NCBI GenBank assembly: GCA_947259075.1
Contig: CAMYKQ010000039.1
Span: 1 to 53,653 of the forward strand
Direction: 5' to 3'
Length of the DNA: 53,653 nt
DNA from: an uncultured Gammaproteobacteria bacterium
GTDB lineage: Bacteria > Pseudomonadota > Gammaproteobacteria > DRLM01
The position numbers were made by a program, and so were the translations under genes. Below, piece after piece: positions 38,745 through 49,917 of this stretch (positions within the stretch are counted from its first letter, which is position 1; the number at the start of each line of letters is the position of its first letter). Under the pieces are notes generated by a model. It did not search any database. It was given only the letters and a program-made list of their open reading frames with translations, and was not told the DNA's origin.

Positions 38745-40829
38745 ATGAAACCTGAAGAACAGCAATTCCTCAACGACCTCGACAAGCGCCTGTGGACCAT
38801 GGCCAACAAGCTGCTGCCCATGCTCGACGCCGCCGTGTACAAGCACGTCGTGCTCGGCCTGATCTTCCTCAAATACGTGTCGGATTCTTTCAAGGAACGC
38901 CGTGCGGAGCTGCAAGCCGCGTTCGCCGACCCGAACCACGACTACTACCTGGGCGATGACGGCGCCGAAATGATCGAACAGGAACTCGAAGCCCGCGACT
39001 ACTACACCGAGAAGAACGTCTTCTGGGTGCCGGCCCTGGCGCGCTGGGATTTTCTGCAAGCCAATGCCAAAGTCGCCGTCGGCACCATGCTTCAGGTCAA
39101 AAACGGCAAGACCAGCGAATACAAATTCAACGGCATCGGCCGCCTGCTCGACGACGCGCTCGAAGCCGTGGAGAAGGAAAACCCCAAACTCAAAGGCGTG
39201 CTGGAGAAAGACTACGCCCGCAAGCAGATCGACTCCGCGCTGCCGGGCCTCATCGACCTTATCGCCGAAATCCCATTTAAGCACGGCTCACTCCACGCCA
39301 AGGACATCCTCGGCCACGTGTATGAATACTTCCTCGGCGAATTCGCCATGGCCGAGGGCAAGAAGGGCGGGCAGTACTACACGCCCAAGAGCATCGTCAC
39401 CCTCATCGTCGAAATGCTGGAGCCTTACCAGGGCCGCGTGTACGACCCCTGTTGCGGTTCCGGCGGCTTCTTCGTGCAGTCGGAGAAGTTCGTCGAAGAA
39501 CACGGCGGCCGCATCGGCCAGATCTCCGTCTACGGGCAGGAATCCAACCCCACCACCTGGCGCCTGGCCTCCATGAACATGGCCATCCGCGGCATGGACT
39601 TCGACTTCGGCAAGGAACCCGCCAGCACCTACACCCGCGACCAGCACCCCGACCTGCGCGCCGACTACATCATGGCCAACCCGCCCTTCAACATGAAGGA
39701 GTGGAACGCCGGCGTCAAAGACGACGACCCGCGCTGGAAATACGGCATCCCGCCCGCCGGCAACGCCAACTTCGCCTGGATGCAGCACATGATCCACCAC
39801 CTGGCGCCCCACGGCAGCATGGCCCTCTTACTCGCCAACGGCTCCATGAGCAGCAACACCAACAACGAAGGCGAAATCCGAAAAGCAATCATCGAGGCCG
39901 ACCTAGTCGAATGCATGGTCGCGCTGCCCGGCCAGCTCTTCACCAACACCCAAATCCCCGCCTGCATCTGGTTCCTTACCAAAAATAAGAACCCCTCTCC
40001 CCCCGGGAGAGGGGCAGGGGTGAGGGCGGCGAGTACCCGCGACCGCAAAGGCGAAACCCTCTTCATCGACGCCCGCAACCTCGGCTATATGAAAGACCGC
40101 GTCCTGCGCGACTTTGCGCCCGCAGACATCCGCAAGATCGCCGACACCTTCCACGCCTGGCGCACTTCACCCCCTCTCCCCTTGGGAGAGGGCAGGGGTG
40201 AGGGCGTCCGTTTGAGCGAGGGAGCAAAACTTCCGGAAAACCTGCTTAAGAACGCCCGCGAACTGCGGAAAAACCAAACCGATGCGGAATCGCTCATCTG
40301 GCAATTGATTCGTAACAAACAAATAGCCGACTGCAAATTCCGGCGCCAGCATCCTCTCGACCCCTACATCCTCGATTTCTATTGCAGCGAGAAGAAACTT
40401 GCCATAGAACTGGATGGCGGCCAGCACAGCGGCGCGCCGGCCGTTTCCAGGGATAATAAAAGAACACAATTCCTGGAATCCAAAGGCATTACGGTACTGC
40501 GGTTCTGGAACAACGACGTACTGCAAAATACTGAATCGGTTTTGCAGCAACTCTATAACGCCCTCACCCCAACCCTCTCCCAGGGGGAGAGGGCTTACAT
40601 GGACATCCCCGGCTTCTGCAAATCCGCCACCCTCGAAGACATCAAGAAGCACGACTACGTCCTCACCCCCGGCCGCTACGTCGGCGCGGCGGAGCAGGAA
40701 GCCGATGGCGAACTGTTTGAGGACAAGATGGCGCGGCTCACCGCGCAACTAAACGATCAGTTCGGCGAGAGTGCGCGGCTGGAAACGGTGATTCGCGAGA
40801 ATTTGGCGAGGCTGGGTTATGGCAGGTGA
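38745..40829 (+). CDS. hsdM: type I restriction-modification methyltransferase subunit with inserted DUF559 domain
   Basis: 694 residues, about 150 more than expected. Residues 1-415 are a normal HsdM: N-terminal helical domain (QQFLNDLDKRLWTMANKLL), SAM motif VYDPCCGSGGFFVQ (near 232) and catalytic ANPPFN (near 310). Residues about 416-430 are the translation of a solo REP palindrome. Residues 431-475 return to HsdM (RDRKGETLFIDARNLGYMKD). Residues about 476-616 are a second insertion containing a complete DUF559 nuclease-like domain. From YMDIPGFCKSATLEDIKKHD the HsdM tail resumes to the end. Every junction is in frame. The enzyme N6-methylates adenine with HsdS; whether the enlarged subunit still works is unknown. 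It overlaps hsdS by 11 bp. Confidence 0.93.
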   Translation: MKPEEQQFLNDLDKRLWTMANKLLPMLDAAVYKHVVLGLIFLKYVSDSFKERRAELQAAFADPNHDYYLGDDGAEMIEQELEARDYYTEKNVFWVPALARWDFLQANAKVAVGTMLQVKNGKTSEYKFNGIGRLLDDALEAVEKENPKLKGVLEKDYARKQIDSALPGLIDLIAEIPFKHGSLHAKDILGHVYEYFLGEFAMAEGKKGGQYYTPKSIVTLIVEMLEPYQGRVYDPCCGSGGFFVQSEKFVEEHGGRIGQISVYGQESNPTTWRLASMNMAIRGMDFDFGKEPASTYTRDQHPDLRADYIMANPPFNMKEWNAGVKDDDPRWKYGIPPAGNANFAWMQHMIHHLAPHGSMALLLANGSMSSNTNNEGEIRKAIIEADLVECMVALPGQLFTNTQIPACIWFLTKNKNPSPPGRGAGVRAASTRDRKGETLFIDARNLGYMKDRVLRDFAPADIRKIADTFHAWRTSPPLPLGEGRGEGVRLSEGAKLPENLLKNARELRKNQTDAESLIWQLIRNKQIADCKFRRQHPLDPYILDFYCSEKKLAIELDGGQHSGAPAVSRDNKRTQFLESKGITVLRFWNNDVLQNTESVLQQLYNALTPTLSQGERAYMDIPGFCKSATLEDIKKHDYVLTPGRYVGAAEQEADGELFEDKMARLTAQLNDQFGESARLETVIRENLARLGYGR
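39992..40028 (+). repeat. solo REP family B palindrome inside hsdM
   Basis: CCCCTCTCCC (39992-40001) and GGGAGAGGGG (40005-40014) form a perfect 10-bp stem with a 3-nt loop, followed by CAGGGGTGAGGGCG. It is translated in frame as about PSPPGRGAGVRAAST between the HsdM words FLTKNK and RDRKGE. It has the same orientation as the left end of the DUF559 cassette. Confidence 0.9.
40172..40593 (+). mobile_element. DUF559 cassette flanked by inverted REP palindromes, inserted in hsdM
   Basis: The ends (40172-40206 and 40559-40593) are 35-bp inverted repeats with three mismatches by eye. Each contains a CCCTCTCCC/GGGAGAGGG hairpin with CAGGGGTGAGGGCG facing inward. Between them is a complete DUF559 domain, related to Vsr-like endonucleases, of about 115 residues: ENLLKNARELRKNQTDAE, FRRQHPLDPYILDFYC, the PD-(D/E)xK-like AIELDGGQHSG and FLESKGITVLRFWNNDVLQN. 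No ATG opens the domain, so it is probably expressed only as part of HsdM, or from an internal TTG. The cassette stays in the hsdM frame at both ends. Confidence 0.88.
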
Positions 40830-42039
40830 GTGGCCCCCTACAACGCTCGCTAAGGTGTTGTCGTTTTCCAACGGGAAATCGAGTCCCGACCGCGCCGATA
40901 ATTTGCCTTTTCCTGTGTATGGGTCAAATGGCATCATCGGATTCGCTTCCGAGACAAACGCCGAGCCAAACACAATCGTGATAGGCCGAGTTGGCAGCTA
41001 CTGCGGATCACTATATTTCAGCAAAGAGAAATGTTGGGTAACGGATAATGCGATTCGAGCAAGTGCCATCGATGATAACGATGCAAAGTTTCTTTTGTAC
41101 TTGCTACAGACCCTCGATCTGAACCACTGGCGAGCTGGGTCTGGTCAGCCACTACTTAACCAAACAATACTTGGTTCAATCCCCACGTCGATTCCCAAGC
41201 CCGACGAACAACGCGCCATCGCCCACATACTCGGCACGCTCGACGACAAGATCGAACTCAACCGTCGCACGAACGAAACGCTGGAGGCCATCGCGCGGGC
41301 GATCTTCAAGTCCTGGTTCGTCGACTTCGACCCCGTCCGCGCCAAAGCCAGCGGCGAAGCGCCCAAATCCATCTGCCGCCGCCTCGGCCTCACCCCCGAC
41401 CTCCTCGCCCTCTTCCCCGACCACCTCGTCGATTCCGAGCTCGGTGAGATTCCGGAGGGGTGGGAGGTGAAGCCCCTTGATGAAATTGCGGATTACCTTA
41501 ACGGCCTCGCACTCCAGAAATTTCCTCCCGAGAATGATTCCGAGTGGTTGCCAGTTATCAAGATTTCGCAACTTAAAAAGGGAGATTCAGTTGGCGCGGA
41601 TCGCGCTTCGCATAAATTGAAACCCGAATACATCGTGGGTGACGGCGATGTACTGTTTTCATGGTCTGGTAGCCTGGAAGTAGATATATGGTGCAGTGGC
41701 AAAGGCGCGCTTAACCAGCATCTCTTCAAAGTCACATCCACCAATTACCCCAAGTGGTTATATTTTTACTGGACGAAGTATCACCTTTCTAATTTTCAGG
41801 CGATTGCAGCGGGTAAGGCTGTCACGATGGGCCATATCCAGCGCAAGCATCTGACAGAAGCACTTTGTGCCGTGCCGTCAAAACTTCTCATGGAAAAAGT
41901 AGACGGCATCATTGCACCGCTGCTCGATAAACAAATCGAGGACCGCAAAGCATCACGCACATTAGGTCTAGTGCGCGACACCCTCCTCCCCAAACTCCTC
42001 TCCGGCGAGCTGCGCGTGCCGGTCGCGGGTGCGGCATGA
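40819..42039 (+). CDS. hsdS: type I restriction-modification specificity subunit
   Basis: 406 residues with two target-recognition domains and the conserved helical spacers. TRD1 covers about 1-125, followed by DEQRAIAHILGTLDDKIELN and NETLEAIARAIFKSWFVDFDPV. TRD2 covers about 210-350, ending with a repeat of the helix (LLDKQIEDRKASRTLGLVRD). HsdS sets the DNA sequence read by the M and R subunits. The two TRDs look lower in GC than hsdM and hsdR, as is usual for exchanged domains. The start overlaps hsdM, and the stop overlaps the next gene by 4 bp. Confidence 0.93.
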   Translation: MAGEWPPTTLAKVLSFSNGKSSPDRADNLPFPVYGSNGIIGFASETNAEPNTIVIGRVGSYCGSLYFSKEKCWVTDNAIRASAIDDNDAKFLLYLLQTLDLNHWRAGSGQPLLNQTILGSIPTSIPKPDEQRAIAHILGTLDDKIELNRRTNETLEAIARAIFKSWFVDFDPVRAKASGEAPKSICRRLGLTPDLLALFPDHLVDSELGEIPEGWEVKPLDEIADYLNGLALQKFPPENDSEWLPVIKISQLKKGDSVGADRASHKLKPEYIVGDGDVLFSWSGSLEVDIWCSGKGALNQHLFKVTSTNYPKWLYFYWTKYHLSNFQAIAAGKAVTMGHIQRKHLTEALCAVPSKLLMEKVDGIIAPLLDKQIEDRKASRTLGLVRDTLLPKLLSGELRVPVAGAA

Positions 42040-42737
42040 GATTCGAAGTCTACTGCGACGAAAGCCGCCCCGACCTGTTGTGCTCCCGGCGCCCGACCGC
42101 GCGATACATGGTGATTGGCGGATTATGGCTGCCCGCTGAAGAGCGAGTGCGCATGAAGAATGATATTCATGCGCTACGCGACAAGCATCACATAGGGGGT
42201 GAGTTCAAATGGCAAAAGGTGTCGCCGTCCAAGCTGGAGTTTTACCGTGATCTCGCCGATTGGTTTGCGGCGATGGGGGATAATCTACGTTTTCGTTGCA
42301 TTGCCGTTGAGCATGACAAGCTTGATTTGCTCCGTTTTCATAACGACGATCAGGAACTGGGGTTTTACAAGTTTTATTATCAGATGCTGCATCACTGGAT
42401 ACTCGACTTCAATGAATATGCCGTATTCTGTGACTTCAAAAGCAATCGGGTAAGGACGCGCCTGCGTGAGCTGGCCCGTTGTCTCGCCAATGCGAATCTC
42501 ACCTCGGACATCGTGAACGTACAAGCCGTTCGTTCCAGTGAGTCGGTACTGATGCAGGCGGCGGATGTGTTGACCGGGATTGCGGCCGGGCGGCTTAACA
42601 ATAATCTACGTGCCGGCAGTGCGAAGTGGGGACTGGCGACGCATCTCGAACAGGCGCTTGGACGTCCCATACGAGCCACTTATCGTTCAGAGCAGAAATT
42701 CAATGTATTCGTGATCGATTTGGCCGGAGGGTGGTAA
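42036..42737 (+). CDS. DUF3800 family protein
   Basis: 233 residues. The family signature VYCDESRPD opens it, followed by VIGGLWLP, GGEFKWQKVSPSKLEFY and a late acidic block LMQAADVLTGIAAGRLNN. DUF3800 is thought to have an RNase H-like fold with carboxylate residues, and members often lie in mobile or defence islands; activity is untested. It is coupled to hsdS by an ATGA overlap and followed 1 bp later by the next gene, so hsdM, hsdS, DUF3800 and the 139-residue gene form one operon. Confidence 0.85.
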   Translation: MRFEVYCDESRPDLLCSRRPTARYMVIGGLWLPAEERVRMKNDIHALRDKHHIGGEFKWQKVSPSKLEFYRDLADWFAAMGDNLRFRCIAVEHDKLDLLRFHNDDQELGFYKFYYQMLHHWILDFNEYAVFCDFKSNRVRTRLRELARCLANANLTSDIVNVQAVRSSESVLMQAADVLTGIAAGRLNNNLRAGSAKWGLATHLEQALGRPIRATYRSEQKFNVFVIDLAGGW

Positions 42738-42738
42738 G

Positions 42739-43158
42739 TTGGCCTATCCTCCGTTGGTTCGTTATGCGGCTGAGCAGGAATACCGAGTTCATTTCGAGCG
42801 GGTCTATTGCCGGGGAACGATTCGGACATTTGACGACATTGAAGTGCGTTTTCGCAAGGCGATGTTCGATCACTGCTTCTTCGACTCGGTGCGTTGGAAG
42901 GATGATACGTTCTCACCAAAGCGCGCGGAACGCATCGATTGGATTAAAGCTGCGCTGGAGGACCCCGCTGCGGAGTTGCGGTTGGGGTGGGACAACGAGA
43001 AGAAACGGGCGGCAAATGACCGGCGGGTGGCAATTGTCGTGGCTAACTATGTGGTGATAATCCGAATTTACCGGCCTGGTAAGGCGGAGTTTGTGACGGC
43101 GTTTGTCGCGGGGCAGAGGACGATCAACCAGATTCGGTCGAATCCGCTTTGGGCATAA
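42739..43158 (+). CDS. unrecognised 139-residue protein downstream of DUF3800
   Basis: The start is TTG 42739, one base after the DUF3800 stop. I do not recognise the family. The middle is charged (FRKAMFDHCFFDSVRWKDDTFSP). The C-terminus has paired strands, RRVAIVVANYVVIIRIYRPGKAEFVTAFVAG, a pattern also seen in small RelE/barnase-like nucleases, but no catalytic set is evident. Position and spacing suggest it works with DUF3800. Confidence 0.7.
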   Translation: MAYPPLVRYAAEQEYRVHFERVYCRGTIRTFDDIEVRFRKAMFDHCFFDSVRWKDDTFSPKRAERIDWIKAALEDPAAELRLGWDNEKKRAANDRRVAIVVANYVVIIRIYRPGKAEFVTAFVAGQRTINQIRSNPLWA

Positions 43159-43354: not shown

Positions 43355-43513
43355 ATGACAAGCGAATATCATCTCGAACAACGCGCCCTCACCTGGTTCC
43401 AGGACACTGACCGGGAATACCATCACGGCCCGGACATTGTCCCGGACGGCGAGACACTCGAGCGCCATAGCTTGTTGGGCGCCACGATGAAGGCCGGAGG
43501 CAGCGGAGAATAA
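43355..43513 (+). pseudogene. hsdR 5' fragment 1
   Basis: A 52-residue frame from ATG 43355. Residues 1-38 match the start of HsdR (EQRALTWFQDTDREYHHGPD aligns with EQLALTWFQDSGWEYRHGPD). The match then ends and the frame closes just before fic. Differences from the full gene are spread through codons, many of them third positions, so this is a diverged relative and not a fresh duplication. It may still be translated and could couple fic expression, since fic starts 3 bp after its stop. Confidence 0.85.
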
Positions 43514-43515
43514 AT

Positions 43516-44640
43516 ATGGCAAAACCGGTTTACTACCACCTCGGAAAATTTCCGCCCGCGGAATTGGACTGGAAACGGTTGATCCCGCTGATCGGCAAGG
43601 CCAATGCTGGTCTTGCCCGCTACGACGGTTTGCTGTCGGCGATCCCCAATGCGTCGGTGCTGCTGTCGCCATTGACCACGCAGGAAGCGGTGCTCTCGTC
43701 CAGGATCGAGGGTACCCATGTGACGATGGGCGAGGTGCTGGAACTGGAGGCGGGCGGCGAGCCGGAGGATGTGACCCAGCCCAAGCGCGACGATGCCGAG
43801 GAGATTCTGAACTACCGGATTGCGTTGCGCTCTTGCGTGGATGCCTTGAAGGAGCGTCCGCTTTCCCAGTATCTGGTTCGGCAGGCCCACTACCTGCTCA
43901 TGCAGGGTGTGCGCGGAAAAGAGCAAACACCGGGAAGTTTCCGTACGGATCAGAATTGGATCGGCACTAAGGGCTGCCGCATTGAAGAGGCGAGTTTTGT
44001 GCCGATTGCACCCGCGCAGCTTGGCTCGGGAATGGATGCCTGGGAAGCCTACATGAATGGCGATGGCGAGCTGGATGCGCTGGTGCAACTCGCCATCGTG
44101 CATGTGGAGTTCGAGGCGCTGCATCCATTCAAGGATGGCAATGGGCGCCTGGGGCGGATGCTGATTCCGTTATTCCTCTATAAGAAAAAAATTCTCAGCA
44201 GCCCCGATTTTTATATGAGCGGCTATCTGGAGGCGCATCGTGAGACCTATCAGGAACGGTTGCGCTCCGTTTCGCGCGATGGCACGTGGACGGATTGGTG
44301 TGCATTCTTCCTGGAAGGGATCGTGGAACAGTCCGCCGAGAATGAACAAAAGGCGAGAGCCATCCTCGCACTTTATGAGCAGGTCAAAACCCGGGTTGTT
44401 GACCTGACCCATTCGCAGCATGCCATCCGGGCGGTGGATTTCCTGTTTCAGACTCCAATATTCAAGGCTCCCGACTTTACCGAACAGTCCGAGATCCCCA
44501 AGCCGACCGCAGCCCGCATTCTTGCAATGCTCCGGGAGGATGGATTGCTTCATGCGCTACGTGAAGGGAGGGGGAGGAGATCGGGGATTTATGCTTTCCG
44601 CGAACTGCTGAATGTTGCAGAGGGTCGGCGGATTATTTGA
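43516..44640 (+). CDS. Fic-domain protein (AMPylase family) with C-terminal winged helix
   Basis: 374 residues. The N-terminal inhibitory helix reads SSRIEGTHV, the S/T-xxx-E-G motif of self-inhibited class II Fic proteins. The active site is complete: HPFKDGNGRLGR from about residue 203. A C-terminal winged-helix region (about 300-374, IPKPTAARILAMLREDGLLH) could bind DNA. Such proteins transfer AMP from ATP to protein targets, and they are common cargo in type I restriction loci. GGAG precedes ATG 43516. It lies between two hsdR start fragments. Confidence 0.9.
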   Translation: MAKPVYYHLGKFPPAELDWKRLIPLIGKANAGLARYDGLLSAIPNASVLLSPLTTQEAVLSSRIEGTHVTMGEVLELEAGGEPEDVTQPKRDDAEEILNYRIALRSCVDALKERPLSQYLVRQAHYLLMQGVRGKEQTPGSFRTDQNWIGTKGCRIEEASFVPIAPAQLGSGMDAWEAYMNGDGELDALVQLAIVHVEFEALHPFKDGNGRLGRMLIPLFLYKKKILSSPDFYMSGYLEAHRETYQERLRSVSRDGTWTDWCAFFLEGIVEQSAENEQKARAILALYEQVKTRVVDLTHSQHAIRAVDFLFQTPIFKAPDFTEQSEIPKPTAARILAMLREDGLLHALREGRGRRSGIYAFRELLNVAEGRRII

Positions 44641-44726
44641 GTCTCACGTATGCACCTTTAATCAATAAATGTCTCATTTTTTTATTAAAATGAGACATAA
44701 AATGGAGATTGTTTAATGCGTGAGAC
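44641..44726. promoter_or_regulatory. symmetric nested palindrome after fic
   Basis: The inner arms, 44669-44680 (ATGTCTCATTTT) and 44687-44698, are a perfect 12-bp inverted repeat with a 6-nt loop. The outer arms, GTCTCACG (44641-44648) and CGTGAGAC (44719-44726), are a perfect 8-bp inverted repeat. Both gaps are exactly 20 bp. The word GTCTCA/TGAGAC therefore occurs four times with 30-bp spacing on each side of the centre. The layout fits a cooperative repressor site or a recombination site. The region down to 44809 is AT-rich and has no gene. Confidence 0.6.
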
Positions 44727-44809
44727 GCAAACTCTGACACGTTAAAAACTATTATCTTATTGATATTTAATGACTTGTTTATTTAGACGCAAATCCAGGC
44801 GGACGTGAA

Positions 44810-44941
44810 ATGACCGAAGACGACCTCGAGCAACTCGCCCTGACCTGGTTCCAGGACTCCGGCTGGGAATACCGCTTTGGTCCTGACATCGCCCCGGACG
44901 GCGATATGCCTGAGCGCGCCGATTACCGGCAAGTCGCGTAG
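44810..44941 (+). pseudogene. hsdR 5' fragment 2, cut by the REP/RAYT element
   Basis: 43 residues from ATG 44810, matching HsdR closely (LEQLALTWFQDSGWEYRFGP, then ERADYRQV) until the REP palindrome begins at 44938 and supplies a TAG stop. It is nearer to the full gene than fragment 1 is, but still has many synonymous differences. The rest of this hsdR copy is gone. Confidence 0.9.
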
Positions 44942-45026
44942 GTCGGGTTAGCCCATCGGGCGTAACCCGACATTGCAGGGGGCTGGCAACAGGCACGTCG
45001 GGTTACGCTACGCTAACCCGACCTAC
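44938..45026. repeat. inverted pair of REP family D palindromes, left side
   Basis: Two REPs face each other (44938-44973 and 44996-45026), each with the GGTCGGGTTA stem, making a BIME-like unit 22 bp before the transposase start. Confidence 0.88.
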
Positions 45027-45048: not shown

Positions 45049-45582
45049 ATGAGATACCGGCGCGCGTTCACTCCCGGCGGTTCTTTTTTCTTCACCGTGG
45101 TGACGGAGCGGCGGCGGCCTGTGCTGGCTTCGGCGGCGGTGGAGGTGTTACGCACGGCATTGCGGGCGGTGTGTGACACGCGGCCTTTCGTGGTGGACGC
45201 GATGGTGGTCTTGCCGGATCACCTGCATTGCATCTGGACGTTGCCGCCGGGGGATGCCGATTTCGCGACGCGTTGGCGGTTGGTTAAAACGTGGTTCACC
45301 AAACATTGTGCCCCGGCGTTGCGTGCGGCGCCGAATCGCGCGCGGATGGCGAAGGGAGCACAGGCGTTGTGGCAGCATCGGTACTGGGAACACGCGCTGC
45401 GCGACGAGGCGGATTTCGCCCGGCATGTGGAATATATCCATTACAACCCGGTGAAGCACGGATTGGCGGTGTCGGCGCTGGCATGGCCGTATTCGAGCTT
45501 TCGCCGGTATGTCGCGGAGGGTGTTTATCCGGCGGATTGGGGACAGGGCGGGATGGATTTCGAGGGCGTGGGACATGAATGA
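45049..45582 (+). CDS. REP-associated tyrosine transposase (RAYT, Y1/HUH family)
   Basis: 177 residues, full length. The HUH motif is DHLHCIWTLP, and the nucleophile Tyr is in VEYIHYNPVKHGLA. Other family blocks are MRYRRAFTPGGSFFFTVVT, LWQHRYWEHALRDEADF and WPYSSFRRYV. RAYTs nick single-stranded REP DNA and are thought to spread REPs. All motifs are present and the frame is intact, so it may be active on the flanking palindromes. Confidence 0.93.
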   Translation: MRYRRAFTPGGSFFFTVVTERRRPVLASAAVEVLRTALRAVCDTRPFVVDAMVVLPDHLHCIWTLPPGDADFATRWRLVKTWFTKHCAPALRAAPNRARMAKGAQALWQHRYWEHALRDEADFARHVEYIHYNPVKHGLAVSALAWPYSSFRRYVAEGVYPADWGQGGMDFEGVGHE

Positions 45583-45617
45583 TTCAGGCAGGTTGTCCGG
45601 TTGCGATGGCGGAAAAA

Positions 45618-45648
45618 CGTCGGGTTACGCTGCGCTAACCCGACCTAC
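45618..45648 (-). repeat. REP family D palindrome, right side
   Basis: CGTCGGGTTACGC and GCTAACCCGACCTAC, differing at one base from the copy at 44996-45026 in the same orientation. Confidence 0.9.
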
Positions 45649-45746: not shown

Positions 45747-46739
45747 GTGAAAAATAATAAATTTGGCGAAGTTGTCCTGTACCAGACTCCCAGTGGCGAA
45801 ACTCGCCTGGAGGTTCGGCTGGAGCATGACACCGTCTGGCTGCGGCAGGAGCAAATGAGCCAGTTGTTCGGGCGCGAACGCTCCGTGATTACCAAGCATC
45901 TGCGCAACGTGTTTGCCGAGGGGGAGCTGGACGAAAAAAGCAATGTGCAAAATTTGCACATTGCTGGTTCGGATAAGCCTGTCAGGTTTTATAACCTCGA
46001 TGTCATCATATCGGTAGGCTATCGGGTCAAGTCGCCGCAGGGTACACGCTTCCGTCAGTGGGCAACAAATGTGCTGCGCGAGCACCTGACCCAAGGCTAC
46101 ACGCTGAACCGCCAGCGCTTCGAGCAGAACGCCCGCGAGCTGGAAGCGGCGCTGGCATTGGTGCGCAAGGCGGCCGTCGGGGAGGCACTGACCACGGACC
46201 AGGGGCGCGGGCTGGTGGATGTGATAGCACGCTATGCCCAAACCTTCCTGCTGCTGCAACGCTACGACGAAGGTTTGCTGGCTGAGCCGCAGGGGGTCGC
46301 GGGCGGCAGGCTGGCGTCGCTGGATGAGTCGCGCGCGGCGCTGGCTAGGCTGAAGGCCGATCTCATCTCGCGTGGCGAGGCAACGCCGCTGTTCGCGCAG
46401 GAACGGGGTGATGCCTTCGCGGCCTTGCTGGGCAATCTCGAGCAGACGGTGTTCGGCGAGCCGGCCTATCCCAGCGTGGAGGCGAAGGCGGCGCATCTGC
46501 TGTATTTCGTCATCAAGAACCATCCGTTCTCGGACGGCAACAAGCGCAGCGCCGCCTTCCTGTTCGTGGATTTCCTGAATCGCAACGCCCGCCTGCTGGA
46601 TGAGGCTGGCAATCCGGTCATCAATGACATCGGTTTGGCGGCATTGGCCCTGTTGGTGGCGGAATCCGATCCGGCACGTAAAGAGACGATGATCCGGCTC
46701 ATCATGAATATGCTCGCGGGAGTGGCGGATGATCACTGA
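45747..46739 (+). CDS. rhuM: RhuM/Fic-DOC fusion protein
   Basis: 330 residues from GTG 45747. The N-terminal about 150 residues are the RhuM domain (TVWLRQEQMSQLFGRERSVI, FYNLDVIISVGYRVKSPQGT), which resembles phage antirepressor-like DNA-binding modules. The C-terminal part is a Fic/DOC domain with HPFSDGNKRSAA from about residue 259. The last Arg of the canonical Fic motif is absent, making it closer to Doc kinases. RhuM homologues are frequent between hsdS and hsdR. It overlaps the start of hsdR by 11 bp, so it may set hsdR translation. Confidence 0.92.
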   Translation: MKNNKFGEVVLYQTPSGETRLEVRLEHDTVWLRQEQMSQLFGRERSVITKHLRNVFAEGELDEKSNVQNLHIAGSDKPVRFYNLDVIISVGYRVKSPQGTRFRQWATNVLREHLTQGYTLNRQRFEQNARELEAALALVRKAAVGEALTTDQGRGLVDVIARYAQTFLLLQRYDEGLLAEPQGVAGGRLASLDESRAALARLKADLISRGEATPLFAQERGDAFAALLGNLEQTVFGEPAYPSVEAKAAHLLYFVIKNHPFSDGNKRSAAFLFVDFLNRNARLLDEAGNPVINDIGLAALALLVAESDPARKETMIRLIMNMLAGVADDH

Positions 46740-49700
46740 AGACCAGCTCGAACAACTCGCCCTCACTTGGTTCCAGGATTCCGGCTGGGAATATAGGCAC
46801 GGCCCGGACATCGCGCCGGATGGTGATACGCCCGAACGCGCCGATTACCGGCAGGTGTTGTTGCAAGGGCGCTTGCACGATGCGCTGCACCGGTTGAATC
46901 CGGCTGTGCCCGATGCGGTGCTGGAAGAGGTGTTGCACCGGGTCGCCAAACTGCATGAGCCTTCGGTTATCCAGAGTAACCGCAGCTTCCACGAAGCGCT
47001 GCTCGACGGGCTGGCGGTGATTGTCGAGAAGAACGGCGAGAAGCGCGGCGACCGCGTGCGCTTGATCGATTTCGAGCATCCGGAACTAAACCAGTTTCTA
47101 GTGGTGAACCAGTACACGGTGCTGGGCACCAAACAGCCGCGGCGGCCGGACCTGGTGTGTTTTATCAACGGCATTCCCATCGCGGTGATCGAACTCAAGA
47201 ACCCGGCGACGGAGCAGGCGGCTATCTGGTCGGCGTTCAATCAGCTGGAAACCTACAAAGCTGAGATTACCGATCTGTTTGTGTTCAACGAGGCGTTGGT
47301 GATTTCGGATGGCCTGCACGCGCGCGTGGGTTCGCTGACGGCGGACCGGGAACGCTTTATGCCGTGGCGCACGCTGCGCAACGAGAACGACCGGCCGTTG
47401 CTGGAGTTTGAGCTGGAGAAAATGGTGCGCGGCTTCTTCGCGCCCGGGCTGCTGCTGGACTATCTGCGCTACTTCATTTTGTTCGAGCAGGGCGACGACG
47501 GGATCATCAAGAAGATCGCCGGTTATCACCAGTTTCACGCCGTGCGCGAGGCGGTGCGCGCCACGGTGATTGCAGCCACGCAGCCGCAGGTTGCGGCGAG
47601 CAAAGCAGAGGAGGAGCGCGCCACCTATGGTAAACGTGTGGTGCCCGGTTCGCGCAAGGGCGGCATCGTGTGGCACACCCAGGGCTCGGGCAAGAGCATT
47701 TCCATGGTGTGCTACACCGGCAAGCTGATGCAGCAGCCGGAGATGCGGAACCCGACGATAGTCGTGGTCACCGACCGCAATGATTTGGACGGGCAATTGT
47801 TCCAGACCTTTGCGGGTGCGCGATCGCTGTTGAAGGAAACGCCGCAACAGGCCGAAGACCGCGACCAGTTGCGAACACTGTTGAATGGACGGCCAGCCGG
47901 CGGCATTATTTTTACAACCGTACAAAAATTCTCGCCCGAAAAGGACGAGGAGCAGTTCCCGCGCCTGACCGATCGAACCAACGTCGTCGTCATCGCCGAC
48001 GAGGCGCACCGCTCCCAGTATGGCTTTAACGCGGTGCTGGACAAGAAGACGGGCAAATACAAATATGGTTTTGCCAAACACCTGCGCGATGCCTTGCCCA
48101 ACGCGACCTTTGTCGGCTTTACCGGTACGCCGGTGGAGACCGACGACAAGGACACCCGCGCGGTATTCGGTGATTACGTCAGTGTCTACGATATTCAAGA
48201 TGCCGTGGATGACGGTGCCACCGTACCGATCTACTACGAAAGCCGTTTGGCCAAGCTGGATATCAACCAAGCGGAGATCGAACAGCTCAGCGACCAAGTC
48301 GATGAGATTTTCGAGGACGAAGAGAGTCTCGCGCTGCGCGAAGCGGCCAAGACCAAGTGGGCCGCCTTGGAAAAACTGGTCGGCGCCGAGCCGCGTATCC
48401 AGCAAGTCGCCGCCGATCTCGTGCAGCATTTCGAGGCGCGTATCGCGGCGGTTGAAGGTAAAGCCATGATCGTGGCCATGAGCCGGCAAATCTGCGTCGA
48501 TCTATTCGATGCGATTATAGAATTGCGTCCGCACTGGAAAGGCACATTGGTGCCGGGAAAAGGCACGGATAAACCGAGTCACTACAGCTCGGATGATGGC
48601 GCAATCCGCATTGTCATGACAGGATCCGCCGCCGATAATGCGAAGTTGCAACCGCACATCTACAACGCCACCACCAAGAAGCAACTGGAAAAGCGCTTCA
48701 AGAACCCGAAGGACCCGCTGAAGCTGGTGATCGTGCGCGACATGTGGCTCACCGGTTTTGATGTGCCGTGCCTGCACACCATGTACGTGGACAAGCCCAT
48801 GCGCGACCACAACCTGATGCAGGCCATCGCCCGCGTGAACCGCGTATTCCGCGACAAGGAAGGCGGTTTGGTGGTGGACTACATCGGCATCGCCGCCGAG
48901 CTGCGCCGGGCGCTCAAGACCTACACCGAGAGCCGCGGCAAGGGCCAGCCGACACTCGATGCGGTGGAAGCGCTGGCCAAGCTCAAGGAACTGATGGACA
49001 TCGCGCGCGGGCTATTGCACGGCTTCGACTATTCGGCGTATCGCACGCAGGCCACCGGCTTGCTGCTGCCGACCGCCAACTTTGTGCTGGGGCTGGATGA
49101 CGGCAAGAAGCGCTGGTTCGACGTGGTGTTGGCCATCACCAAAGCCTTTTCGCTGTGCGGCACGCTGGACGAAGCGATTGAGCTGCGAGAAGAGATCGCT
49201 TTCTTCCAGGCGATCAAGAGCGTGATCGCCAAGGCAACGGTACCCGACAAGAAGCTCTCCGAAGACAAAAAGAATGCCGTTCTCAAGCAGATTCTAGATA
49301 ACGCGGTCGTAGCCCAGGGTGTGGAGGATATTTTCAAACTGGCGGGATTGGATCGGCCAGATATTGGCATCTTGTCCGATGCATTTTTGGAAGAGGTGCG
49401 CCAGCTACCCCAGCGTAACTTTGCCGTCGAACTGCTGCAAAAACTACTTAATGATGAGATAAAATCTCGCAGCCGCACAAACGTGATCCTGGAGAAGAAA
49501 TTCAGCGATCGCTTACTGGCCGCGCTGAACCGTTACCGCAGCAGAGCCATTGAGAGTGCTCAGGTCATCGAAGAACTGATCGAGATGGCCAAGGAGTTCC
49601 GCGAAGCGGCCAAACGGGGCGAGAACCTGGGCCTCACCGAATCCGAACTCGCCTTCTACGATGCCTTGGCGGTCAACGAAAGCGCTGTGCGCGAGCTGGG

Positions 49701-49917
49701 TGATGAAGTCCTGAAAAGGATTGCGAACGAATTGACCGAAAAACTGCGCAACAGCACAACGGTGGATTGGCAAAGGCGCGAGAGCGTGCGCGCGCGGCTG
49801 CGCAACCTGGTGCGCATCACCTTGCGCCGCTACAAATATCCGCCGGATAAACAGGAAGAAGCAATACGATTGGTTCTCGAACAGGCAGAACGGTTATCGG
49901 ATGAGTGGGTGAAATAG
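46729..49917 (+). CDS. hsdR: type I restriction enzyme motor/endonuclease subunit
   Basis: 1062 residues, full length. The N-terminal PD-(D/E)xK nuclease has RRPDLVCFINGIPIAVIELK (Asp near 140, Glu-x-Lys near 153-155). The SF2 translocase follows: Walker A HTQGSGKS near 315, DEAHRSQYG near 424, FVGFTGTPV, and late helicase block LMQAIARVNRVFRDKEGG. The C-terminal about 250 residues are helical and bind HsdM. HsdR cuts unmodified DNA after ATP-driven translocation. The nearest methyltransferase and specificity genes are 4.7 kb upstream, separated by accessory inserts. No terminator is evident after it. Confidence 0.95.
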   Translation: MITEDQLEQLALTWFQDSGWEYRHGPDIAPDGDTPERADYRQVLLQGRLHDALHRLNPAVPDAVLEEVLHRVAKLHEPSVIQSNRSFHEALLDGLAVIVEKNGEKRGDRVRLIDFEHPELNQFLVVNQYTVLGTKQPRRPDLVCFINGIPIAVIELKNPATEQAAIWSAFNQLETYKAEITDLFVFNEALVISDGLHARVGSLTADRERFMPWRTLRNENDRPLLEFELEKMVRGFFAPGLLLDYLRYFILFEQGDDGIIKKIAGYHQFHAVREAVRATVIAATQPQVAASKAEEERATYGKRVVPGSRKGGIVWHTQGSGKSISMVCYTGKLMQQPEMRNPTIVVVTDRNDLDGQLFQTFAGARSLLKETPQQAEDRDQLRTLLNGRPAGGIIFTTVQKFSPEKDEEQFPRLTDRTNVVVIADEAHRSQYGFNAVLDKKTGKYKYGFAKHLRDALPNATFVGFTGTPVETDDKDTRAVFGDYVSVYDIQDAVDDGATVPIYYESRLAKLDINQAEIEQLSDQVDEIFEDEESLALREAAKTKWAALEKLVGAEPRIQQVAADLVQHFEARIAAVEGKAMIVAMSRQICVDLFDAIIELRPHWKGTLVPGKGTDKPSHYSSDDGAIRIVMTGSAADNAKLQPHIYNATTKKQLEKRFKNPKDPLKLVIVRDMWLTGFDVPCLHTMYVDKPMRDHNLMQAIARVNRVFRDKEGGLVVDYIGIAAELRRALKTYTESRGKGQPTLDAVEALAKLKELMDIARGLLHGFDYSAYRTQATGLLLPTANFVLGLDDGKKRWFDVVLAITKAFSLCGTLDEAIELREEIAFFQAIKSVIAKATVPDKKLSEDKKNAVLKQILDNAVVAQGVEDIFKLAGLDRPDIGILSDAFLEEVRQLPQRNFAVELLQKLLNDEIKSRSRTNVILEKKFSDRLLAALNRYRSRAIESAQVIEELIEMAKEFREAAKRGENLGLTESELAFYDALAVNESAVRELGDEVLKRIANELTEKLRNSTTVDWQRRESVRARLRNLVRITLRRYKYPPDKQEEAIRLVLEQAERLSDEWVK

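What the first reader, a model, noticed from the sequence alone, without database searches (positions are those of the whole stretch)
44641..44726. Perfectly symmetric nested palindrome between fic and hsdR fragment 2
Inner 12-bp and outer 8-bp inverted repeats share one centre, with identical 20-bp gaps, so TGAGAC-type half sites repeat at 30-bp intervals on both sides. Chance is unlikely. It could be an operator for fic or for the old hsdR, bound perhaps by the winged-helix tail of Fic, or a recombination site.
Basis: partly seen in the sequence, partly recalled or inferred. Interest (0 to 1): 0.55.

Follow-up and report, generated by a model that had tools for sequence, protein, structure and literature searches.

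The report
Six-site DNA docking array for Fic
A symmetric DNA repeat behind a bacterial defence-toxin gene is part of a rigid six-site array that recurs beside related toxin genes in many bacteria, and is probably where the toxin's own DNA-binding tail docks, which would make control of this toxin testable.

Summary
The palindrome is exactly as described. It is the visible part of a larger element: six 11-bp half-sites (window consensus TGAGACRYAAA) at 44636-44731, in alternating orientation with fixed spacing 15-15-25-15-15 bp. The first half-site overlaps the fic stop codon; two half-sites (F2, R5) are degenerate, which explains the two equal gaps. Scanning with this grid, 44636 is the best of 53,558 window positions (97; next 78; mean 43). 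Among 66 Fic-homologue loci the best position of the whole locus lies within 9 bp of the fic stop in 20 and upstream of fic in 12. In 21 loci fetched afterwards it is 14 and 3. The half-site sequence changes between clades; Arg334 of the Fic recognition helix goes with a TG start (24 of 25 with, 0 of 19 without). Best reading: the docking operator of the Fic protein's own C-terminal winged helix (SoFic-type defence toxin). Binding and its consequence are inferred. Only half of the loci have hsdR downstream, so it is not simply an hsdR operator. The nearest precedent, CccR, binds two boxes in its own promoter. A partial-Mantel helix/site signal in the first set did not replicate alone in the later 14 loci.

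The parts
43516..44640 (+). fic: 374-aa class II Fic protein with C-terminal winged helix (recognition helix about residues 329-342)
   Evidence: Pfam Fic_N and Fic; PADLOC SoFic E 1.3e-110; AF2 model pLDDT 90.8 with HTH and wing; best PDB match SoFic 3zec
44636..44731 (.). six-half-site array, whole element
   Evidence: grid score 97, best of 53,558 window positions
44636..44646 (-). half-site R1 TGAGACTCAAA, overlaps the fic stop codon TGA
44651..44661 (+). half-site F2 TGCACCTTTAA, degenerate in this window
   Evidence: the same slot is closer to the consensus in L009, L010, L011, L013, L021, L024
44666..44676 (-). half-site R3 TGAGACATTTA
44691..44701 (+). half-site F4 TGAGACATAAA
44706..44716 (-). 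half-site R5 TTAAACAATCT, degenerate; the weakest slot in the loci with a downstream array
44721..44731 (+). half-site F6 TGAGACGCAAA
44810..44934 (+). 5' fragment of hsdR (scar), 82% like the intact gene
46729..49917 (+). intact hsdR, possible downstream target
   Evidence: Pfam

Best explanation
The element is a specific DNA docking array for the Fic protein encoded immediately upstream. Shown: six 11-bp half-sites in alternating orientation with fixed spacing, conserved in register with the fic stop codon in many loci and placed upstream of fic in other clades; half-site sequence that differs between clades, with Arg334 of the predicted recognition helix tracking a TG start. Inferred: two or three Fic dimers bind the array through their winged helices. 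Inferred with less confidence: the bound protein (a) reduces its own expression and read-through into the next gene (hsdR here), and (b) may be held in a non-toxic dimeric state while bound.
For: Window grid optimum exactly at 44636. In 66 homologue loci the best grid position of the whole locus is at the fic 3' end in 20 (one of them, L036, weak at 72) and in the upstream window in 12. In 21 loci fetched later and scanned with the same grid: 14 at the 3' end, 3 upstream, 4 neither. Half-site columns 1-6 correlate with the recognition helix after allowing for distance in the Fic domain (partial r 0.49, p 0.0002, n=23; of 61 protein windows the three best lie in the winged helix). R334 with TG start: 24 of 25; without R334: 0 of 19; about 4 changes of R334 on the tree. 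The model has a helix-turn-helix and wing. Precedent: CccR, a Fic with HTH, footprints on two inverted 10-bp boxes and autorepresses (PMC9755527, section 10 part 1 read). A single inner pair in the whole genome suits a one-target regulator.
Against: No binding experiment exists. The partial Mantel test fails in the 14 later loci taken alone (partial -0.12, p 0.74) and is weaker when all 37 are pooled (0.23, p 0.0055; 0.20, p 0.04 deduplicated). Only about four R334 changes, and the clades are few, so the association partly follows phylogeny. Single half-sites occur elsewhere in the genome (3 besides this array). No promoter could be shown in the array (5 of 19 loci against 2.9 expected, 31 of 200 shuffles as good), so the regulatory outcome is unproven. 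Some close homologues show no grid (L022/L034, L023, L025, L031, L040, L056; L200, L202, L203).
Confidence: 0.76

Rival explanations
1. Operator or attenuator dedicated to hsdR: Fic bound between fic and hsdR lowers hsdR expression so that methylation precedes restriction.
For: 12 of 24 array loci have hsdR downstream; in L009 and L014 the hsdR start lies at +100 and +93 from the fic stop, just behind F6.
Against: 11 of 24 array loci show no restriction subunit next (L032, a helicase, is ambiguous), including fic genes without RM neighbours found (L015, L018-L021, L024), yet keep the array close to the fic stop; in L020 and L021 the next called gene is on the opposite strand. No promoter demonstrated.
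Confidence: 0.3
2. RNA element: a long hairpin in the fic mRNA 3' end (terminator, mRNA protector or processing site).
For: Folds at -34.7 kcal/mol, z -7.2; terminator-like hit on the minus strand; R3:F4 is the most similar pair of sites (8.78 of 11).
Against: Any palindromic operator folds. Nested partners are not significantly more alike than non-partners (16.6 against 16.1 of 22, Wilcoxon p 0.12, 23 loci, one, L012, out of register). Where column 7 of R1 is T, as the stop codon requires in most loci (16 loci, L012 included), F6 has the matching T in only 2. The same grid appears upstream of fic in other clades. No Rfam family at gathering score; one sub-threshold miRNA hit.
Confidence: 0.1
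3. Mobile-element end or recombination site that moves fic cassettes.
For: fic sits in a hot spot between hsdS and hsdR with three copies of the hsdR 5' end.
Against: The array is on one side of fic only in nearly all loci (L018 has both), varies in sequence with the Fic clade, and no integrase or transposase is tied to it; the scars are hsdR sequence, not array sequence.
Confidence: 0.04
4. Operator of a different, unlinked regulator that happens to sit beside fic.
For: Phage contigs L095/L174 carry a four-site version although no Fic was found in their records.
Against: The common neighbour of the array in the homologue loci is fic, and site sequence differs between Fic clades. The loci were collected by Fic, so this is a one-sided sample.
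Confidence: 0.12

Closest known systems
CccR of Yersinia pseudotuberculosis (PMC9755527; passages and section 10 part 1 read)
   Same: Class II Fic with C-terminal HTH; specific inverted DNA boxes beside its own gene; wide spacing between half-sites; shown to autorepress.
   Different: Two boxes AGATAATCAT-N26-ATGATAATCT in its own promoter; here six half-sites, 15/25-bp grid, at the 3' end of the gene, other sequence.
SoFic / Sofic (PDB 3eqx, 3zec; PMC12249575, abstract and section 4 read)
   Same: Same architecture; PADLOC SoFic model 1.3e-110; best fold match.
   Different: Another paper says DNA binding of SoFic had not been shown (passage, PMC10628234); EcSofic is controlled by a downstream 47-aa protein AS1, not tested for here.
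CbFic2 of Coxiella burnetii (PMC10628234; passages only)
   Same: Fic with HTH whose activity is switched by DNA: deAMPylating dimer when bound.
   Different: Random DNA used, no specific site known; host-directed effector.
RptR of type I RM islands (PMC12255303; abstract and outline only)
   Same: Regulator with conserved repeats in type I RM loci carrying an embedded toxin system.
   Different: Separate small repressor, three direct repeats in the island promoter, minimal site TAGCTA.

Membership tests
Class II Fic / SoFic defence protein | Fic motif HPFx(D/E)GNGRxxR | tested here: met
   H203 P204 F205 D207 G208 N209 G210 R211 ... R214 invariant in 18 aligned homologues
Class II Fic / SoFic defence protein | N-terminal inhibitory helix (S/T)xxxE(G/N) | tested here: met
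   S61, I64, E65 invariant, G66 nearly so; motif as given
Class II Fic / SoFic defence protein | C-terminal winged helix | tested here: met
   AF2 model helices 303-312, 318-324, 329-342 and strands 346-349, 358-360
SoFic (curated models) | PADLOC SoFic profile | tested here: met
   368 bits, residues 8-368
SoFic (curated models) | NCBIfam SoFic equivalog cut-off 550 bits | tested here: not met
   165 bits; so a SoFic-like relative, not an equivalog
SoFic (curated models) | AS1-type small antitoxin gene downstream | not tested
   ORFs under 60 aa were not listed in the window
CccR-type self-operator | Inverted boxes next to own gene | tested here: met
CccR-type self-operator | Located in own promoter, upstream | tested here: not met
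   no array in the 200 bp upstream of the window fic (34 of 40 shuffles as good); upstream placement is seen in other clades
CccR-type self-operator | Bound by the Fic protein in vitro | not testable with these tools
   needs gel shift or footprint
Structured RNA | Base-pair covariation specific to partner arms | tested here: not met

The most novel reading that the evidence does not exclude
The array is a cis-encoded DNA lock: SoFic-type toxin made near its gene docks on the adjacent array and is held there as a harmless (perhaps deAMPylating) dimer; loss, occlusion or competition of the array during phage infection frees the toxin and triggers abortive infection. Phages carrying the same array without a fic found in their record (L095/L174) would then be carrying a DNA decoy for this toxin.
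Probability: 0.13. Interest if true: 0.88.

Novelty: new variant of a known kind. Interest (0 to 1): 0.62.

Why it matters
The CccR paper says nearly nothing is known about the functions and activity control of class II Fic proteins although they make up 80% of Fic proteins (passage). A rigid, sequence-specific array beside the gene, shared by Fic homologues on contigs labelled Betaproteobacteria, Desulfobulbaceae, Hydrogenedentes, Verrucomicrobiales and Phycisphaerales, gives a defined DNA ligand, a geometry and a candidate specificity residue (334) to test directly, including whether DNA binding switches toxicity.

Tried and rejected
Rfam: nothing at gathering score; mir-246 at 23.6 bits against 60 is chance. 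Sigma-70 promoter inside the array: F4 as -35 and TTTAAT (44712-44717) as -10 looked attractive in the window and near relatives but is not above shuffles with sites held fixed. RNA pairing: not supported. Fic homologues in viral contigs: none by peptide patterns. Bare inner pair as a search word: 2 of 369 class genomes (the second, L070, has only a distant Fic match of 24.9%, E 2.7e-6, and a chance-level grid score of 43). Automated motif finding gave wrong or mixed motifs for several loci (for example WIN, L007, L010, L018, L036); the grid replaced it. It was read off the clean ones (L009, L011, L013, L021, L024).

Rows dropped: 12 of 67 loci left out of the alignment (L003-L006, L023, L025, L026, L031, L034, L040, L044, L066: distant, truncated or duplicate). 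The coevolution tests use only loci where an array was found; L201 was misregistered and left out. L012 was out of register. Neighbour families were scanned only for the first set, not for L197-L217.

Full report
What is there. In a scan of all centres of the window it has the best two-sided symmetry (33 of 48, next 29). The single word is common, and the inner pair is unique in the 3.1-Mb genome.

Context. Upstream is a 374-aa Fic protein (Fic_N plus Fic) with intact Fic motif and inhibitory helix, a confident model with a C-terminal winged helix (pLDDT 90.8), best fold match SoFic 3zec and a strong PADLOC SoFic match, though it misses the NCBIfam SoFic equivalog cut-off (165 of 550 bits). 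The locus is a type I RM operon (hsdM, hsdS, hsdR) with extra genes between hsdS and hsdR. Downstream of the palindrome is a 125-bp scar of the hsdR 5' end (44810-44934), then a REP-associated transposase, a RhuM-Fic gene and the intact hsdR.

Homologues. One scan of genome contigs gave 20 Fic loci. By eye most carry GTCTCA/TGAGAC-like quartets directly behind fic. One search ran a 9-mer repeat statistic on the flanks of 67 loci including the window; many near relatives exceeded all 40 shuffles downstream, several distant ones upstream (upstream flank of the window fic: 34 of 40 shuffles as good). Motif finding revealed in the clean loci a fixed grid: half-sites R1 F2 R3 | F4 R5 F6 with starts at 0, 15, 30, 55, 70, 85 and alternating orientation.

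Grid test. Scoring all positions for agreement among the six oriented 11-mers, the window's optimum among 53,558 positions is 44636 with 97 (next 78, mean 43.3, sd 6.4). Of 66 other loci, the best position of the entire locus lies at -7 to +9 from the fic stop in 20 (L007-L011, L013-L016, L019-L021, L027-L030, L032, L033, L038, and weakly L036, tied at 72), and in the upstream window in 12 (L018, L039, L041-L043, L046, L055, L057, L058, L060, L063, L068; three of these, L046, L055 and L063, score only 69-71). L018 also has a top-ranking position at its 3' end. L017 and L024 fit with a 26-bp centre (scores 119 and 134), and L012 has a rearranged array. The remaining loci, mostly distant or truncated homologues, show none. 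As an out-of-sample test, 21 new loci from 398 phylum genomes were scanned with the unchanged grid: 14 of 21 have their optimum at -4 to +11 from the stop, 3 of 21 upstream, 4 of 21 neither (L200, L202, L203, L216). The later loci carry other half-site sequences (CGATACACAAA, CCGTACACAAA, TGAGCCACAAA and others) on the same grid.

Who reads it. The 3' half of the half-site (CACAAA-like) is common to many clades, the 5' half varies. In the first 23 array loci without L038, distance in columns 1-6 correlates with distance in residues 327-339 after allowing for the Fic domain (partial r 0.49, p 0.0002), and of 61 protein windows the three best are in the winged helix (319-331, 325-337, 355-367). 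Against this: the 14 later loci alone give -0.12 (p 0.74), the pooled 37 give 0.23 (p 0.0055), the 31 deduplicated 0.20 (p 0.04), and L201 was misregistered in that run. A simpler association holds across 44 loci (36 downstream and 8 upstream arrays): Arg334 with TG-starting sites 24 of 25, no Arg334 0 of 19, with about four changes of R334 on a tree of the Fic domain. Position 334 was chosen after seeing the alignment.

What it is not. RNA pairing is not supported: nested partner arms are not significantly more alike than non-partners (p 0.12; 10 loci for, 4 against, 9 ties), and where R1 has T in column 7, as the stop codon requires in most loci, F6 matches in 2 of 16. A promoter inside the array was not above shuffles. 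An hsdR-only operator is too narrow: hsdR lies downstream in 12 of 24 array loci examined; L032 has a helicase that may be a restriction subunit; the other 11 have something else, nothing recognised, or (L029) a neighbour that was not scanned.

Mechanism. I propose that Fic dimers dock on the array through their winged helices. CccR is a direct precedent for specific binding and autorepression by a Fic protein. CbFic2 shows that DNA can switch such an enzyme to a deAMPylating dimer, and its authors speculate the same for CccR on its promoter. Whether the array here mainly limits expression, shields hsdR, or locks the toxin is not decided by sequence. That the array sits behind fic genes with no RM neighbour found and no upstream counterpart (L015, L019-L021, L024) argues for an effect on Fic itself.

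Novelty. Paper searches listed no description of such an array beside SoFic-type genes; only PMC papers under open licences are held and most hits were seen as listings only, so absence is provisional. I rate it a new variant of a known kind (a self-operator of a Fic-HTH protein) with new geometry and position.

Noticed in passing
43358-43482, 44810-44934, 46732-46856: Three copies of the hsdR 5' end (66% and 82% identity to the middle copy) between hsdS and hsdR: before fic, after the array, and in the intact gene; similar scars near fic in L007, L008, L009. Suggests cassettes that enter together with a foreign hsdR 5' end.
   Followed up: partly
L095:1027-1092 and L174:1979-2044 (IMG/VR contigs): Four-site version of the array (10, 9, 10, 10 of 11 matches on the exact grid) at the start of a 118-aa gene beside an RNA ligase gene; no Fic found in the records, which may be fragments; reversed-sequence control gave 0 hits. 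Possible phage decoy or a phage operator.
   Followed up: partly
42036-43158: DUF3800 protein and partner match PADLOC candidate PDC-M04A/B; 45747-46739 matches PDC-S23: the hsdS-hsdR gap stacks several candidate defence genes.
   Followed up: no
44995-45026 and 45617-45648: 97% identical 32-bp REP-like repeats around a REP-associated tyrosine transposase gene (45049-45582), apparently inserted after the hsdR scar; L007 shows RhuM-Fic directly after its scar.
   Followed up: partly
38745-40829: HsdM carries an in-frame DUF559/MTES_1575 endonuclease-like domain (residues 500-607) near its C-terminus.
   Followed up: no
L023: Nitrosomonas sp. Nm132 locus where fic is truncated and hsdR matches begin at residue 171, so Fic C-terminus, array and hsdR start appear deleted together.
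   Followed up: no
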